Shown one piece after another: positions 6,841 to 57,096 of a stretch of DNA of 64,000 bases. The stretch is taken from the NCBI RefSeq assembly GCF_029478095.1, contig NZ_JAKOAV010000004.1:62001-126000 (forward strand), given 5' to 3'. The stretch is from Pelotomaculum isophthalicicum JI. Its GTDB lineage: Bacteria; Bacillota; Desulfotomaculia; Desulfotomaculales; Pelotomaculaceae. A model generated the notes under the pieces. That model worked only from the letters and a program-made list of their open reading frames with translations, was not told the origin of the DNA and made no database searches. The translations under genes were made by a program, and so were the position numbers. Numbering within the stretch: the stretch's first letter is position 1; every line of letters begins with the position of its first letter.

Positions 6841-6993
6841 GTTTAATTTATAAAACTAATGTATTGCCAGCCTCCTGTAAAGCATGTAAGCCCTGACTGA
6901 ACCTGTTGCCTCGAACAGCCTCCAAAAAAATTCGGCGGTTAAAAGCATTTAACCACAACCTTTCCTCAATTTTTTGGGGACCTTTCTTTAGTC

Positions 6994-7022
6994 ATTATAC
7001 CATACGCCAAAATTGATGACAA
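6994..7022 (-). promoter_or_regulatory. Sigma-A-type promoter of the pheST operon
   Basis: Minus strand: -35 TTGTCA (7022-7017), 17-bp spacer, -10 TATAAT (6999-6994). It lies about 150 bp upstream of the first T-box element and is the likely start of the pheST leader. Between it and the T-box I see only the remainder of the leader. Confidence 0.75.
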
Positions 7023-7056
7023 GAAAGTTTGCAATCAAAAATGTCTGAATTATTTA

Positions 7057-7860
7057 TTAACTATTTACTGAGTTGCGTTGGCGCACAGCTTCGTACAGCA
7101 GTATGGCTGTCGATATCGCAACATTTAAAGATTCAGCGCGGCCCGGCATCGGGATATGAACGCGTTCAAACACAGCGGACATAACATTTCCCCCGGGACC
7201 CCTGGGTTCACTGCCGACAACCAAGGCGCAAGATTCAGTCAAATTACTTTCAAATATAACCTTGCCGCCGTGTGGCATACCGGCAACAAGTTTGATGCCA
7301 TGACGATTAAAAAATGTTTCCACTTCATCAAACGCACTGTTACGAATAACCGGAATATGAAAAATTGAGCCCATGGTTGCCCGCAACGCTTTCGGGTTGA
7401 ATATATCGGCAGTTCCTTTCAGAAGAATAACGCCATCCGCGCCTGCCGCGTCAGCCGAACGCACAATGGTACCCAGATTTCCCGGATCCGCAACCCCGTC
7501 AACCAGCACCAGCAGCCAGGGTCTCACTCCCGCATGCAGGTCATTCAGCTTATACCACCGCCACTTTACAACAGCCAAAATGCCCTGTGGGGTGACAGTA
7601 TCAGCTAACTCTTCAAAAAGTGACTCTTCCACCTCCAAGACAGATATGCCTCTAACCGACGCAGCTTCCAGCAATGCCTGTCCACGGGCATTACACATTG
7701 CCTTCTCGCAATAAACTAGCATTTCCACGGAAAAGGATGATTCCAAAGCTTCTTCCACAAAACGCGTACCTTCGACCAGAAACTTTCCTTCTAAATCCCT
7801 GAAGCGGCGAGTTGCAAGGCGGCGCAAGTATTTTATGCGGGGATTTTGTCTGCTTATCAA
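7057..7860 (-). CDS. TrmH/SpoU family RNA 2'-O-ribose methyltransferase
   Basis: A SAM-dependent SPOUT methyltransferase that methylates ribose 2'-OH in rRNA or tRNA (RlmB/TrmH group). The N-terminal substrate-binding domain starts NPRIKYLRRL and carries FLVEGTRFVEEAL. The C-terminal SPOUT knot shows the family motifs DPGNLGTIVRSADAAG, NPKALRATMGS, VGSEPRGPGG and IPMPGRAESLNVAIS. Length is 267 residues. The start is TTG, 12 bp after the stop of the ktrA-like gene, so the two are probably co-transcribed. The exact target nucleotide cannot be told from sequence; the common pairing of this gene with pheST fits the Bacillus ysgA arrangement. Confidence 0.88.
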   Translation of the reverse strand: MISRQNPRIKYLRRLATRRFRDLEGKFLVEGTRFVEEALESSFSVEMLVYCEKAMCNARGQALLEAASVRGISVLEVEESLFEELADTVTPQGILAVVKWRWYKLNDLHAGVRPWLLVLVDGVADPGNLGTIVRSADAAGADGVILLKGTADIFNPKALRATMGSIFHIPVIRNSAFDEVETFFNRHGIKLVAGMPHGGKVIFESNLTESCALVVGSEPRGPGGNVMSAVFERVHIPMPGRAESLNVAISTAILLYEAVRQRNSVNS

Positions 7861-49819: not shown

Positions 49820-50275
49820 TTACCCCCTATGCAGGTCCTCAAACCTCCTCATCACAGTTTCTGCGACCTGTTTTGGTTTGACAACCACCAGGATAGTGTC
49901 ATCTCCGCCCACAGTGCCTATTATCTCCCGCCAGCCAATTTTATCTATTGCTGATGCGACACCTTGCGCCTCGCCGGGATGCGTTTTAATTACAAGCAAG
50001 TTTTCGCTTATGGCCAAGCTGACAACAGAGTCGCGGAAATACCGCTTCAAGCGATCTTTCGTGCTTTGGGTAGTCTGTTCTCCGGGGTAAGCATATTTAA
50101 AATGATTGTTTTCACATGGTATTTTGATTAAACCCAGTTCTTTGATATCCCTTGAGACTGTTGCCTGGGTAACCTCAAAGCCACATTTCCTTAAGTTTAC
50201 GGCAAGCTCTTCCTGCGTTTCAATTATTTCTTGCTGGATAAGCTCAAGGATTTTGTGTTGCCGCCTGGCTTTCAT
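49820..50275 (-). CDS. argR: Arginine repressor ArgR
   Basis: A hexameric arginine-responsive regulator of arginine synthesis and catabolism. The N-terminal winged helix ([37 protein letters not shown]) binds ARG boxes; the C-terminal domain has the arginine-binding [12 protein letters not shown]. The ATG at 50275 starts the family; it overlaps the end of mnmM by 32 bp. In this position, before recN, it is often called AhrC in Bacillus. Confidence 0.95.
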
Positions 50276-50852
50276 GCGGAGCACCTGCTTTCTCAATAAC
50301 GATTATCACCGGCGCTTGAGCAGAACGATTTAAATAACTTATTTTAATTACGTTAAATTCAGACCCTTCCAGGCCAGACGTGAACTGTTCCACGGCATAA
50401 AGTTCTTCAGCGCCGCCCGGATGGCCGGTATAGATAACCATGCCGATTCTTCCACCCTGGCGGAGCAATCCAATCGCGGATTTTAACGCGCCAATGGTGG
50501 TGTCAGGTCTGGTAACCAGAGCATGGTCGCCCCCCGGCAGGTAACCAAGATTAAATACGACTGCGTCCACCGGTACAGGCACCGACTTGTCTAATCCTTC
50601 ATGTCCCGTGTTTAGCAATGTAACTTGCCTCGCGGCATTATGACGTTCAAGTAATTTTCTTGTAGTTTTTAAAGCCTTTTCTTGTATGTCAAAAGCATAG
50701 ACCCGCCCTTCGGAACCAACCGTTTGAGCCAGAAACAGGGTGTCGTTTCCATTTCCCGCTGTAGCATCCACTGCTGTCCCGCCACTTTTTAACACTTTGG
50801 CAATAATCATTTGGACTATGTGGACGGCGCTCCCCAAATCCTTGTTAATCAC
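50244..50852 (-). CDS. mnmM: Class I SAM-dependent methyltransferase, MnmM (YtqB) type
   Basis: A Rossmann-fold methyltransferase of 202 residues. SAM-binding motif I is [16 protein letters not shown], motif [12 protein letters not shown], and motif [19 protein letters not shown]. This pattern fits the YtqB family, recently assigned as MnmM, which methylates the wobble uridine modification of some tRNAs. It overlaps nadK by 8 bp upstream. Confidence 0.85.
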
Positions 50853-52566: not shown

Positions 52567-54474
52567 TTAATCGAGAACCACCTTTAGCTTATTAGGTACT
52601 TTCCTTGGCACACATTTACCAGCGACAACATCGACTATATGTTCCACATTAAGGCCATACTTTTCCATTAACAATGCATGGCTGCCATGTTCAATAAAGC
52701 AGTCGGGAATGCCGAAACGGTGTACCAAGACATCTTTTTTCCCTTTAGCTGACAATAATTCTAAAACAGCGCTTCCAAAACCATTTTTTAATACGTGTTC
52801 CTCAATTGTAAAAACCTTTCCTGTAATTGCGGCATATTTAAGGATTATTTCCTCATCAAGAGGTTTAATAAAACGGGCGTTGATTACAGTAGCTTCAATA
52901 CCCATTCCGGACAGAATCCCGGCCGCATTTTCAGCCCTGCTCACCATACTCCCCACCGCAAGCAAAGTGAGGTCCGCCCCTTCTCTTAGCACTTGGGCCT
53001 TACCGATAGGCAGTAATTTTAATTCCTTGTCCATTTTGCAGCCTATTCCAGCACCCCGCGGGTAGCGTACAGCCGCCGGCCCATGGTGGTTCACCGCTGT
53101 GGCAATCATATGCTGCAGCTCATTTTCATTTCCCGGCGCCATGATAATCATATTGGGAATTGTTCCGAGATAAGAAAAGTCAAAAAGGCCATGATGAGTA
53201 GGGCCATCCTCCCCAACAATGCCAGCCCGGTCAATAGCAAAAGTAACCGGCAGGTTTTGGAGACAAATATCATGCAAGATCTGATCAAAAGCGCGTTGGA
53301 GGAAGGTTGAATATATTGCCACAACGGGGTGATAACCCCCGGCGGCAAGTCCGGCGGCCAAAGTAACCCCATGCTGTTCAGCAATACCCACATCAAAAAA
53401 ACGTTCCGGAAAAAGTCGCGCGAATTTTGTCAAACCCGTGCCGCCCGGCATAGCGGCAGTGATCGCAAGGACGTTCCGCTCCCTGCCGGCAAGCTTCACC
53501 ATAGTTCTGCCAAACACTTCAGTGTATGAAGGAATGCTGATACTCTTCTTAATCTCTCCACTGGCAACGTCAAACGGACCGACTCCGTGAAACTTGTCCG
53601 GGTTGTTTTCAGCCGGTTTGTAGCCCTTGCCTTTCTTTGTTAAAATATGAACCAGCACCGGCCCTTTAATAGTCCTGGCCCGTTGCAGAACATTAGTGAC
53701 TGCCTTTATATCGTGGCCGTCTATTGGCCCCAGGTAAAAAAAACCCAATTCCTCAAAAATCATTCCAGGCACCACAAGATATTTTAAGCTGTCTTTTAAT
53801 TTATCAATTAAACGTAATAGTTTGGGGCCCGCCGGTAACTTGCGCAAGATTTGCTCTATTTCCTCCTTGCCCTTTGAATACATCGGATCAGTGCGCAAGC
53901 GGTTTAAATAACCGGACATAGCCCCAACATTCTGGGCAATTGACATTTCATTGTCATTTAAAACCACGATCAAGTCTTTTTGCATATGGCCGGCATGGTT
54001 AAGCGCCTCATAGGCCATTCCGCCGGTCATGGCGCCGTCGCCGATTACCGCGATTACAGAATAATTATCTCCTTTTAAATCCCGCGCCACCGCCATACCG
54101 AGGGCGGCGGAAATAGACGTGCTGCTGTGCCCCGTACCAAACACGTCGTGCGCGCTTTCAGTAGGCCGGGGGAATCCGCTGATGCCTCCGATTTGACGCA
54201 AAGTATCAAATTCATTATAGCGTCCCGTAAGCAGTTTGTGAGTGTAGCTTTGATGCCCCACATCCCAAATAATCTTATCTACGGGTGAGTTAAACACATA
54301 GTGAAGAGCCAGCGTTAATTCGACGACTCCCAAACTGGGTGAAAGGTGCCCCCCGTTCTTAGCCACGGTATTAATAATTTCCTGACGTATCTCTCCGGCT
54401 AATTCCTGAAGTTGGGCAAAATTTAGCGAGCGAATTACATACGGCGCATGAACTTGTCTTAAAAGTCTACTCAC
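52567..54474 (-). CDS. dxs: 1-deoxy-D-xylulose-5-phosphate synthase
   Basis: The thiamine-diphosphate enzyme that starts the MEP isoprenoid pathway from pyruvate and glyceraldehyde-3-phosphate. The N-terminus has [20 protein letters not shown] and [15 protein letters not shown]; the ThDP motif is [18 protein letters not shown] with its downstream NDN; the transketolase pyrimidine domain has [14 protein letters not shown]. Length is 635 residues. Its GTG overlaps the oapA stop by four bases, so the two are coupled. It sits with ispA around the OLE locus. Confidence 0.96.
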
Positions 54475-55100
54475 TGTTTACCCACCTTTTGTTTGTTCTT
54501 TGATCCCCGTTGCTTCTGGAATGGGCTATAACCGGTAGCCCTTTCTATTTTCGCCAGGATAGTGCCGACAAAAAAAATAATTTCATCGGGATGGCTAAGA
54601 GATAATTTTTTTCCTACCGCTTTGCCGGTAACGATAAAAACAGAAATAAGGGCGGTAAGCAGCACATTCAGCCAAAACTGATCGAACTGCGGTCCCACCC
54701 TCATGATTTGCACTACGATTGATATACCCAGCGCGCCGCTTACCGTGGTGGTTATGTCACCAATAATATCATTTGCGATATTAGCCACTCTATCGGCGTT
54801 TTTGATTAATTGCAATCCCTGGGGGGCGCCTTTTACACGTTTAGCCGCTTTCGCGTTGAAAGGAGTATGAGAGGCAGCTGTCACAGCCGTACCTACAAGA
54901 TCGGCCAGAATGTTTATCGTGATGATAACAGCCAAAAAAACAAAAGATAACAGCAGGTTATTAAATTTAGAGGCGAAAGTTTCCGATAACAAGGTAAATA
55001 TAACTGCTAAAATAAACGATCCTATAGCAACCACGAAAATATATCTACTGGAAACAGTAGATTTATTATTGCCCAAAAATGTCACCTCATACCGCGACAA
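54471..55100 (-). CDS. oapA: OLE-associated protein A (OapA), DUF21-like membrane protein
   Basis: A 209-residue integral membrane protein with four predicted helices (about 20-38, 49-72, 114-131 and 141-160) and a basic C-terminal tail. The intramembrane sequence [31 protein letters not shown] resembles the DUF21 domain of CNNM/CorB Mg2+ transporters. In other OLE-containing bacteria the gene directly downstream of the RNA encodes OapA, which binds OLE and anchors the complex at the membrane. Its position, size and fold here match. It is followed without a gap by dxs. Confidence 0.85.
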
Positions 55101-55120: not shown

Positions 55121-55145
55121 TACTCAGTAGTCAGTAATCAGAATA
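55121..55145. repeat. Heptanucleotide repeats between oapA and OLE
   Basis: Reverse-orientation heptads CTGATTA CTGACTA CTGAGTA, between the oapA start codon and the OLE 3' end. Confidence 0.6.
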
Positions 55146-55178
55146 TTACAAGACATGAAAAACTTTTTTATTATGTAT

Positions 55179-55793
55179 GATAAGTGACGGCAGATTGGGT
55201 AAATATTGTGGCTTAGGTCTAGTAGGTTTTCCCAAACAGCTACCGGCTGTCACCAAACCGGCGGTTACCCTTTACAACTGTCTCCGACCGTCACCGGTAC
55301 CGGGACTAGATTACCACTTAGTCCACACTGCAATCCCCAACCTGCCCTGGAATTCCAGACAGCCTAGGAGTTTTCCTCAACAGAATTTACCTCTTTTAGC
55401 CTCTTTTGCAATAAAGGTTTCAATCATCAAGCCAACCGAGCATGGGCCCACGCCGGCCGGCTCCGTAAAAACTGAAATCCACCCTTACCACTCAAGGCAG
55501 GCTACACTGCACGCAGCTTCGACCACATGCAGGTTTAATCCCAAGCCATAGTATACCGCGCCGCCAGTGCGGCATGGCTTTCCACATACTTGGGTCTCCA
55601 CGGAGGCAGGGTCAACGCCCGCATGCCATTGCGGGTCGCCCAACCACCTTAACTCCCAGTACCGACCCCCGACTGGGCGTCAGCAGCCAGCACCAGGAAC
55701 TTCATCGTTGTGCCCTTAACGGATTTTTAGGCCCGCCTTCAAAAAGGTGTATCTGACTAGGATACTGTGTCACTTATCTAATAAACCGTTTAT
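55179..55793 (-). ncRNA. ole: OLE RNA (ornate, large, extremophilic RNA)
   Basis: A long, G+C-richer, structured non-coding locus on the minus strand between ispA and oapA. The ends close on themselves: GATAAGTGAC (55778-55769) pairs perfectly with GTCACTTATC (55188-55179), bounding 600 nt, the known OLE length. Internal hairpins include CCCGCA/TGCGGG (55635-55630 and 55623-55618), GGACTA/TAGTCC (55324-55319 and 55308-55303) and ACAGC/GCTGT (55250-55246 and 55240-55236). The ispA-OLE-oapA-dxs order is the hallmark of the family. OLE forms a membrane ribonucleoprotein with OapA that is linked to cold, alcohol and Mg2+ tolerance in Halalkalibacterium. No protein gene is supported in this stretch. 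Identification is from context and structure, not a covariance search. Confidence 0.88.
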
Positions 55794-55799
55794 TTTGTT

Positions 55800-55828
55800 A
55801 TTATAACAAAACATCTTTTCTCTTTCAA
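55800..55828 (-). promoter_or_regulatory. Sigma-A-type promoter directly upstream of OLE RNA
   Basis: Minus strand: TTGAAA (55828-55823), 17-bp spacer, TATAAT (55805-55800). It would start transcription near 55793, about 15 nt before the closing helix of OLE. The remaining 55829-55946 holds nothing else I recognise. Confidence 0.78.
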
Positions 55829-55946
55829 ATGCCGGTTTTTCTCCCTATACGCCGTTTAATTGCTTATTAGCCTAAAAAAGAATACCCGCCATATCGCAAA
55901 TCCTAATGGTATCGGTGTGTTCCGATAGATTTAATTCTCATCAAAC

Positions 55947-56825
55947 TCAATGATCCCGGTCAATAATATATTGAACCAGCATTCTCAAAAATTCCGCTTC
56001 ATTTCCGAAACAGCTCAATGCGGACAACGCCCTGTCCGCCGCTTGCCGCGCTTTTCTTCTCGCTTCCTCCAGGCCGAAAAGCGAGGGATATGTCGCTTTT
56101 TTATTCTTAACATCGCTTCCAAGCGGTTTGCCAATTTTTGCCGCGTCACCTTCAATATCGAGAATATCATCAATTATTTGAAAAGCAAGCCCGAAATTAT
56201 CAGCATAGCTTGTTAGTTTATTTATTTTTTCATCACCCGCGCCGGCCAGGATCGCTCCCGTACGAACCGCGGCACGATAAAGAGCGCCTGTTTTGCGACT
56301 ATGAATATATTCAAGCGTGTTCTCATTGATATCCTCTCCCGCGGAAAACGTATCGACAACCTGGCCGCCAATCATACCAAACGTCCCCGCCGCAAGAGCG
56401 ATTTCACCAATAATTTTTACTACAGCGTCCGGATTGCTGCCGCGTATGCCGGCCAGCGTGGAAAATGCCAGCGTCAAAAGGGCGTCACCCGCTAAAATCG
56501 CCACAGCGTCCCCGTATACTTTGTGGTTTGCCGGCTTGCCTCTGCGATAATCATCGTTATCCATAGCAGGCAAGTCATCATGAATCAGCGAATAAGCATG
56601 AATCATTTCCAGAGCGCAGGCCGCCGGCAATACATCCTCAGCTTTGCTCCCCACTGTTTCGGCAGCCTTCATTACCAGAACAGGCCTGAGCCGTTTGCCG
56701 CCCGTGACGCTATAACGCATCGCCTGGTGAATCAGCGCCGGGTAGGCGTCGGCTGGCGGCAGGTAACGCTCAAGCGCCTCATCTACAATTGAACTCAGTT
56801 TGTCAAACGTTTCTTTAAAACTCAA
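55947..56825 (-). CDS. ispA: Farnesyl diphosphate synthase / polyprenyl synthetase
   Basis: Condenses isopentenyl diphosphate with allylic diphosphates to give farnesyl (or geranylgeranyl) diphosphate. Both aspartate-rich motifs are present: first LIHDDLPAMDNDDYRRG, second FQIIDDILDIEGD, with GGKRLRPVL near residue 43. The TTG at 56825 has AGGGGGAC upstream, overlaps the end of xseB, and gives 292 residues, as usual for IspA. The frame continues upstream without conserved sequence. Confidence 0.95.
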   Translation of the reverse strand: MSFKETFDKLSSIVDEALERYLPPADAYPALIHQAMRYSVTGGKRLRPVLVMKAAETVGSKAEDVLPAACALEMIHAYSLIHDDLPAMDNDDYRRGKPANHKVYGDAVAILAGDALLTLAFSTLAGIRGSNPDAVVKIIGEIALAAGTFGMIGGQVVDTFSAGEDINENTLEYIHSRKTGALYRAAVRTGAILAGAGDEKINKLTSYADNFGLAFQIIDDILDIEGDAAKIGKPLGSDVKNKKATYPSLFGLEEARRKARQAADRALSALSCFGNEAEFLRMLVQYIIDRDH

Positions 56826-57096
56826 CTTTTTGTCCCCCTGCCGCCAAGGGCAACTCATTAATTTCTTTCAGGCTTATTTCATCTCTTTCATCAGCGGTCA
56901 GCACGGCAATGCGCTGCTCGGCTGATGCCAGATACTCATTACAGATGCGGGTAAGCCCGATTCCCTCAGTAAACATTTCCAGCGCTTTTTCCAGCGGCAG
57001 CCTGCTGTCTTCCAACTCCCGCACCAGTGTTTCCAAACGCGCTATGGCTTCTTCAAATGATATCTTTTTGCCTTCGACGGTGTTTTTAGCAACCAT
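56815..57096 (-). CDS. xseB: Exodeoxyribonuclease VII small subunit
   Basis: The small subunit that stabilises and activates XseA. The 93-residue protein shows SFEEAIARLETLVRELEDSRLPLEKALEMFTEGIGL, the family core of two helices. Its end overlaps ispA by 11 bp. Here it is separated from xseA by folD and fchA. Confidence 0.93.
   Translation of the reverse strand: MVAKNTVEGKKISFEEAIARLETLVRELEDSRLPLEKALEMFTEGIGLTRICNEYLASAEQRIAVLTADERDEISLKEINELPLAAGGQKVEF

What the first reader, a model, noticed from the sequence alone, without database searches (positions are those of the whole stretch)
55121..55830. OLE RNA locus with its own promoter and the partner gene oapA
A 600-nt structured, non-coding stretch lies between ispA and a DUF21-like membrane protein gene. 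Seen directly: perfect closing helix (55769-55778 with 55179-55188), internal hairpins, and a TTGAAA-17-TATAAT promoter just upstream. Established: OLE RNA of anaerobic and extremophilic Firmicutes is about 600 nt, lies by isoprenoid genes, and acts with OapA at the membrane. Inference: this organism makes a full OLE ribonucleoprotein, and the RNA can be transcribed independently of ispA.
Basis: partly seen in the sequence, partly recalled or inferred. Interest (0 to 1): 0.9.

Follow-up and report, generated by a model that had tools for sequence, protein, structure and literature searches.

The report
OLE RNA gene with toxin-cut site
This is a genuine copy of a large, mysterious bacterial RNA called OLE, with its partner-protein gene beside it; just past its end, here and in many relatives, lies a short sequence that matches the cutting site of an RNA-cutting toxin, which could explain how the RNA's end is made and tie it to stress.

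Summary
Window 55789-55168 (minus strand) is a full-length OLE RNA (RF01071, 525.5 bits) of a Pelotomaculum, between ispA and oapA. Its closing helix covaries and its promoter is conserved. OapB, and family members of OapC and bS21, are encoded elsewhere in the genome. So far this is a new member of a known kind; an own promoter is already reported for Halalkalibacterium halodurans OLE.

Not found in my paper searches: the hexamer UACAUA just 3' of the closing helix. It is in 48 of 132 loci (shuffles 3.1) and in 28 of 79 loci fetched afterwards (shuffles 1.5), and in H. halodurans OLE, read from a published primer. It is the reported in vivo cutting site of Bacillus subtilis EndoA/MazF. Loci of genomes without an EndoA orthologue carry it in 2 of 36 cases, the others in 74 of 174; one tree-based test gives p 0.004, another is inconclusive. 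I propose that EndoA cuts the OLE-oapA transcript there and makes OLE's 3' end. Cutting is inferred, not shown; 100 of the 174 EndoA-bearing loci lack the motif.

The parts
55168..55789 (-). OLE RNA, span of the Rfam match
   Evidence: RF01071, 525.5 bits, model 1-616 of 616; single copy in G000
55800..55828 (-). promoter TTGAAA-17-TATAAT with TG before the -10; start inferred near 55793
   Evidence: site of at least 10 of 12 in the same place in 133 of 207 loci
55769..55778 (-). closing helix P1, 5' strand
   Evidence: 10 bp with 55188-55179; covariation
55179..55188 (-). closing helix P1, 3' strand
55757..55768 (-). P3 helix, 5' strand (ACAG and CCUAG)
   Evidence: pairs with 55370-55359; 98.3% and 100% of cells paired, mostly invariant
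55359..55370 (-). P3 helix, 3' strand
55172..55177 (-). UACAUA, candidate EndoA (MazF) site; predicted cut between 55177 and 55176
   Evidence: position; conservation; predicted unpaired probability 0.95
54471..55076 (-). oapA-type gene, TTG start, 201 aa
   Evidence: relatives match residues 1-201 or nearly; downstream of OLE in 205 of 214 loci
55947..56822 (-). ispA (farnesyl diphosphate synthase)
   Evidence: NF045485, 372.7 bits, cut-off 275
52567..54474 (-). dxs
   Evidence: TIGR00204, 868.6 bits, cut-off 466
56815..57096 (-). xseB
   Evidence: TIGR01280, 68.6 bits, cut-off 35

Best explanation
The stretch encodes an OLE RNA that works with OapA (the next gene), OapB, OapC and bS21 in a membrane ribonucleoprotein. 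Transcription starts near 55793 at its own extended -10 promoter, and may also arrive from ispA, and runs on into oapA. The RNA folds so that its two ends close in helix P1. The UACAUA just outside P1 is then cut by the chromosomal MazF-family RNase EndoA (gene at G000:C8:66238-66585), between 55177 and 55176. This sets the 3' end of an RNA of about 617 nt and frees the oapA message with its ribosome-binding site intact. Shown by computation: OLE identity, helix, conserved promoter, conserved hexamer, presence of an EndoA orthologue. Inferred: the RNP in this organism, the cut, the enzyme, and any tie to stress. The OLE part alone stands at 0.99; the confidence given is for the whole statement.
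For: OLE; P1; promoter. Hexamer: 43 of 132 loci within 30 nt of P1 (shuffle mean 1.7, highest of 300 runs 6; the next three 30-nt windows 4, 3, 2); 48 of 132 in a fixed 50-nt window (shuffles 3.1, highest 10); 28 of 79 loci fetched later (shuffles 1.5, highest 6). It is the commonest hexamer and first of its 60 anagrams in both sets. It is in H. halodurans OLE nt 619-624, by primer KH014 (PMC12054373 Table 1). Enzyme: B. subtilis EndoA cuts only UACAU followed by A in vivo (PMC11780869, passages), and S. thermophilum MazF prefers UACAUA (PMC10893535, passages); the window's genome has an orthologue (4mdx, 4me7, E about 1e-48). Co-occurrence: EndoA-lacking 1 of 15 against 47 of 117 (p 0.010); hold-out 1 of 21 against 27 of 58 (p 0.0004); always-lacking families 0 of 8 against 23 of 49 (p 0.016); rates dependent on EndoA on an OLE tree, LRT 11.1, 2 df, p 0.004. 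The hexamer is predicted mostly unpaired (mean 0.69 against 0.54 for the flank, 76 loci). OLE is reported as processed at its 3' end in H. halodurans (PMC11332333, passage).
Against: No cutting was shown. 100 of 174 EndoA-bearing loci lack the exact hexamer, so it is not required. Two EndoA-lacking loci have it (L116, L218). The independent-pairs test on the tree is inconclusive (7 pairs, median p 1), and the simulation of motif evolution gives 0.19 over all runs and 0.012 only among 251 runs with similar motif totals. The hold-out shares genera and families with the first set. MazF-Da of Ca. Desulforudis prefers UACAAA (PMC8634880, passages), and the specificity of the Pelotomaculum enzyme is inferred from homology. 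The hexamer is not specially rare inside OLE (rank 13 of 60 anagrams). Predicted accessibility exceeds 0.7 in 38 of 76 loci only. RNase P has been shown to cut OLE (PMC11332333, passage).
Confidence: 0.5

Rival explanations
1. UACAUA is a conserved part of the OLE transcript that another factor recognises (a protein partner of OLE, another RNase, or an enzyme that trims 3' ends). Its identity with the EndoA site is coincidental, and the link with EndoA reflects shared ancestry of lineages.
For: The hexamer is conserved but absent from 100 of 174 EndoA-bearing loci; the independent-pairs test is inconclusive. Other RNA enzymes, RNase PH and RNase P, are discussed for OLE in PMC11332333 (passage).
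Against: All six letters match the revised in vivo EndoA motif, the last A included (43 of the 46 TACAT loci have the A). EndoA-lacking families that never bear the motif: 8 of 8.
Confidence: 0.28
2. EndoA does cut at the hexamer, but as a switch rather than as normal maturation: only when the toxin is free, under stress, are OLE and oapA separated, and the OLE 3' end is otherwise made in another way.
For: MazF toxins are held by antitoxins and act when set free (established knowledge of MazEF; abstracts of PMC8634880 and PMC7291052 in the listing speak of stress). The OLE complex is a stress factor (PMC11332333 part 1). The site lies between OLE and oapA.
Against: OLE is among the most abundant transcripts of H. 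halodurans under standard growth, and a ~630-nt RNA is seen (PMC9723947, passage), so an end is made without stress.
Confidence: 0.14
3. This is an ordinary OLE locus. The 3' end is made by exonucleases that stop at P1, or by RNase P or a terminator, and the hexamer has no role of its own.
For: Many OLE loci do without the hexamer (134 of 210). In 7 of 8 loci without a downstream oapA the script finds a terminator-like hairpin soon after P1 and none of the 8 has the hexamer.
Against: Enrichment about 15-fold to 19-fold over shuffles in two sets, and few copies in the next 50 nt (8 of 132).
Confidence: 0.08

Closest known systems
OLE RNA (Rfam RF01071) and the OLE ribonucleoprotein of Halalkalibacterium halodurans
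   Same: Full-length model match, oapA directly downstream, own promoter, OapB, an L7Ae-family protein and bS21 in the genome, isoprenoid genes beside it, and UACAUA near the 3' end also in H. halodurans.
   Different: Nothing in the RNA sets it apart as a new class; the hexamer is not mentioned in the passages that I read.
EndoA (MazF) of Bacillus subtilis, site U^ACAUA
   Same: Exact six-letter site; an orthologue in the window's genome.
   Different: Here the site is kept at a fixed place beside a noncoding RNA. In the passages read, EndoA sites lie across the transcriptome.
MazF of Symbiobacterium thermophilum, site UACAUA
   Same: Same six-base preference.
   Different: The targets proposed there are 31 coding sequences with one site each; no noncoding RNA is named in the passages read.

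Membership tests
OLE RNA (RF01071) | match to the covariance model above the gathering score | tested here: met
   525.5 bits against 50, model 1-616
OLE RNA (RF01071) | closing helix P1 kept by compensatory change | tested here: met
   7 of 10 pairs changed on both sides in 30 sequences
OLE RNA (RF01071) | A-rich P4 loop (CUAAAAA) that makes the dimer contact | tested here: met
   present in the window and in 206 of 210 loci; the role is taken from PMC12286853 passages
OLE RNA (RF01071) | palindromic P9 loop (GGCC) for the kissing contact | tested here: met
   GGGCCC in the window's P9 loop; GGCC in the searched stretch of 193 of 210 loci
OLE RNA (RF01071) | oapA downstream | tested here: met
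   window 54471-55076; 205 of 214 loci
OLE RNA (RF01071) | kink turn for OapC | not tested
   the region is covered by the model match only
OLE ribonucleoprotein | OapB, OapC and bS21 encoded in the genome | tested here: met
   OapB 7k9b E 1.9e-10; L7Ae family 56.8 bits, family level only; bS21 85 bits
OLE ribonucleoprotein | stable RNA at the membrane, stress phenotype | not testable with these tools
   needs RNA and cells
EndoA (MazF) cleavage site | exact U^ACAUA in an unpaired stretch | tested here: met
   55177-55172; predicted unpaired 0.95 here, mean 0.69 in 76 loci
EndoA (MazF) cleavage site | EndoA orthologue in the same genome | tested here: met
EndoA (MazF) cleavage site | motif follows the presence of EndoA across genomes, kinship taken into account | tested here: inconclusive
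   for: rate test; inconclusive: independent pairs, simulation
EndoA (MazF) cleavage site | cut by EndoA | not testable with these tools
   needs end mapping with and without EndoA

The most novel reading that the evidence does not exclude
OLE RNA is a dedicated substrate of the EndoA/MazF toxin, kept by selection: the toxin completes the 3' end of OLE and separates it from oapA, so that a toxin-antitoxin RNase controls assembly of the OLE stress complex.
Probability: 0.3. Interest if true: 0.88.

Novelty: new variant of a known kind. Interest (0 to 1): 0.62.

Why it matters
How OLE RNA gets its 3' end, and how its complex is tied to stress, are open questions. A conserved EndoA site at a fixed place beside the RNA, also in the experimental model species, makes both testable with one deletion strain and one end-mapping experiment. 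It would also give the chromosomal EndoA toxin a specific noncoding RNA target kept by selection.

Tried and rejected
A perfect 19-base palindrome overlaps the -10 box in the window; in relatives the -10 is kept but the right arm is not (by eye), so I rejected it as an operator.

Pairing of the P1 3' strand with the oapA Shine-Dalgarno region, suggested by one fold, is no better for a locus's own pair than for pairs swapped between loci (-6.76 against -6.73, 147 loci): rejected as generic.

I first suspected a Negativicute, which would have gone against PMC11332333; OapA matches Pelotomaculum at 100%, so I dropped it.

A general link between terminators and a missing hexamer among EndoA-bearing loci is not significant (p 0.22). 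The 8 tested loci without a downstream oapA have no hexamer (0 of 8), but 7 belong to one family code (f5) and one to f10, so these are one or two events.

Depletion of the hexamer inside OLE looked strong against shuffles (2 of 132 loci, shuffles 12.9) but is weak against anagrams (rank 13 of 60); I do not use it. The split OLE match of G026 ends 27 nt before its contig end, so it is no insertion.

Rows dropped: L002-L006, L040 and L041 as repeats or near copies of other loci; 3 of 135 loci as near-duplicates; L043, the second OLE of G042, from the tree set; L245, whose anchors were not found. EndoA presence was called at E <= 1e-40, after I had seen that best hits fall into two groups, <= 2.4e-43 and >= 4.3e-31. 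The hexamer was first seen by eye in part of the first set.

Full report
What is there. The Rfam OLE model matches window 55789-55168, minus strand, over its full length (525.5 bits); it is the only OLE match in the 3.6-Mb assembly. The OapA-type protein is 100% identical to that of the MAG Pelotomaculum sp. PtaB.Bin013 and 87% to that of P. terephthalicicum. Neighbours by family search are folD, a cyclodeaminase, xseB and ispA upstream and dxs downstream of oapA. The next downstream ORFs look like tlyA, nadK and argR (names by eye, recalled). oapA is 54471-55076 with a TTG start: 201 aa, 21.6 kDa, four hydrophobic stretches. This fits the published 21-kDa OapA with four predicted membrane helices (PMC9723947, passages; PMC12265935, part 2 of 5). 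It has no NCBIfam match at E 0.1 and no Pfam match above cut-off.

The closing helix 55778-55769 with 55188-55179 is a perfect 10 bp and covaries: in 30 sequences 7 of 10 pairs have changes on both sides. The promoter is conserved: 133 of 207 loci have a site of at least 10 of 12 matches within 90 nt 5' of the CAGTAT anchor, against 6 of 207 in the stretch before it and 3 of 207 after shuffling. An own promoter is already reported for H. halodurans (PMC9723947, passage).

Partners and spread. The genome has OapB between ORFs that look like map and infA (L256 2368-2736; 7k9b, E 1.9e-10), one L7Ae-family protein that may be OapC and one bS21. OLE is found in 55 of 60 relatives, 93 of 101 genomes of the order and 289 of 398 of the phylum sample. 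A homologue of the window's OapA follows OLE in 205 of 214 loci.

The 3' element. While checking the closing helix I saw TACATA just beyond it in many relatives (then). Counted: within 30 nt of the helix in 43 of 132 loci, against a shuffle mean of 1.7 (highest of 300 runs 6); the next three 30-nt windows give 4, 3 and 2. In a fixed 50-nt window it is in 48 of 132 (shuffles 3.1, highest 10), with 8 in the next 50 nt. I then took 80 further loci; 79 could be placed and 28 of the 79 carry it (shuffles 1.5, highest 6). It is the commonest hexamer and first of its 60 anagrams in both sets. The second set shares families and genera with the first, so it is not independent by descent. As a control, tmRNA 3' flanks of relatives carry it in 2 of 30. 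A source outside my search: in the primer table of PMC12054373 (section read) the reverse primer KH014 of H. halodurans OLE1-637 reads back as RNA with UACAUA at nt 619-624.

What the hexamer is. B. subtilis EndoA, a MazF toxin, cuts U^ACAUA in vivo, and only where UACAU is followed by A (PMC11780869, passages). MazF of Symbiobacterium thermophilum prefers UACAUA (PMC10893535, passages). MazF-Da of Ca. Desulforudis prefers UACAAA (PMC8634880, passages). The window's genome has four MazF-family matches. One matches B. subtilis EndoA structures at E about 1e-48 and has an ORF directly upstream that looks like an antitoxin (by eye).

Does the hexamer follow EndoA? EndoA was sought in 134 genomes of the first set and 80 of the second. 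First set: hexamer in 1 of 15 EndoA-lacking and 47 of 117 EndoA-bearing loci, p 0.010; within the order 0 of 8 and 25 of 41, p 0.0016. Second set: 1 of 21 and 27 of 58, p 0.0004. Pooled without L043: 2 of 36 and 74 of 174 (Fisher 6.5e-6, not corrected for kinship). By family code: 0 of 8 families that lack EndoA throughout and 23 of 49 that have it throughout, p 0.016. On an OLE tree a model in which the hexamer's rates depend on EndoA fits better (LRT 11.1, 2 df, p 0.004). Against this, treekit counts only 9 changes of EndoA and its independent-pairs test is inconclusive (7 pairs, median p 1), and a simulation with fitted rates gives 0.19 over all runs, 0.012 among the 251 runs with similar motif totals. 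I take the association as likely, not proven.

Details that fit. P1 is predicted to form (its 3' strand paired 0.94 on average) and the hexamer to be more open than its flank (0.69 against 0.54, 76 loci; 0.95 here; above 0.7 in 38 of 76). In the 8 tested loci where no oapA follows OLE within the fetched stretch (7 of family code f5, 1 of f10) the hexamer is absent, and 7 of them have a terminator-like hairpin. A cut between 55177 and 55176 with a start near 55793 gives about 617 nt; about 630 nt is reported for H. halodurans.

What is in print. Searches for OLE RNA with MazF (1 paper), with toxin-antitoxin (4) and with UACAU (5) gave listings; I did not open those papers, and by title and start of abstract none is about an EndoA site at OLE. 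Of the OLE papers I saw: PMC12265935 parts 1-2 of 5; PMC11332333 parts 1-2 of 7 and passages; PMC9723947 passages; PMC12286853 passages; PMC12054373 passages and one section; PMC10898510 one passage. Figures and supplementary alignments were not seen, so a 3' tail drawn in a published consensus would have escaped me.

Verdict. The OLE locus is a new member of a known kind. The conserved UACAUA element and its tie to EndoA are, as far as these searches show, unreported. EndoA processing of OLE is my best explanation, at about one in two.

Noticed in passing
L043 (G042:C26), OLE on the minus strand at about 6893-7488: A second OLE (407 bits) in a genome that also has a usual OLE-oapA pair (L042). 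It lies on the opposite strand between ORFs that look like rpmA and obg, has a terminator-like hairpin, and no OapA match was found in the 14 kb fetched.
   Followed up: partly
L248-L255 (family codes f10 and f5): Eight OLE loci with no OapA homologue in the roughly 530 nt fetched downstream, seven with a terminator-like hairpin, none with UACAUA: OLE apparently uncoupled from oapA.
   Followed up: partly
genomes G047, G056, G481, G482 (genus code g33): Four genomes of one genus, 92-96% complete, have no OLE match although 93 of 101 genomes of the order do: a candidate loss.
   Followed up: no
window 55793-55811 (minus strand): Perfect 19-base palindrome over the -10 box; not kept in relatives.
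   Followed up: yes
L154 (tmRNA of G023): TACATA directly after the CCA end of the tmRNA gene; 2 of 30 tmRNA flanks carry the hexamer.
   Followed up: no
G170, G227, G257, G275, G302: OLE matches counted as two or three pieces with weaker scores; insertions or contig ends, not looked at.
   Followed up: no
window 49820-50296 (minus strand): An ORF that looks like ArgR (by eye) lies further down the same gene string; ArgR is named as an OLE partner from unpublished work in PMC12265935.
   Followed up: no
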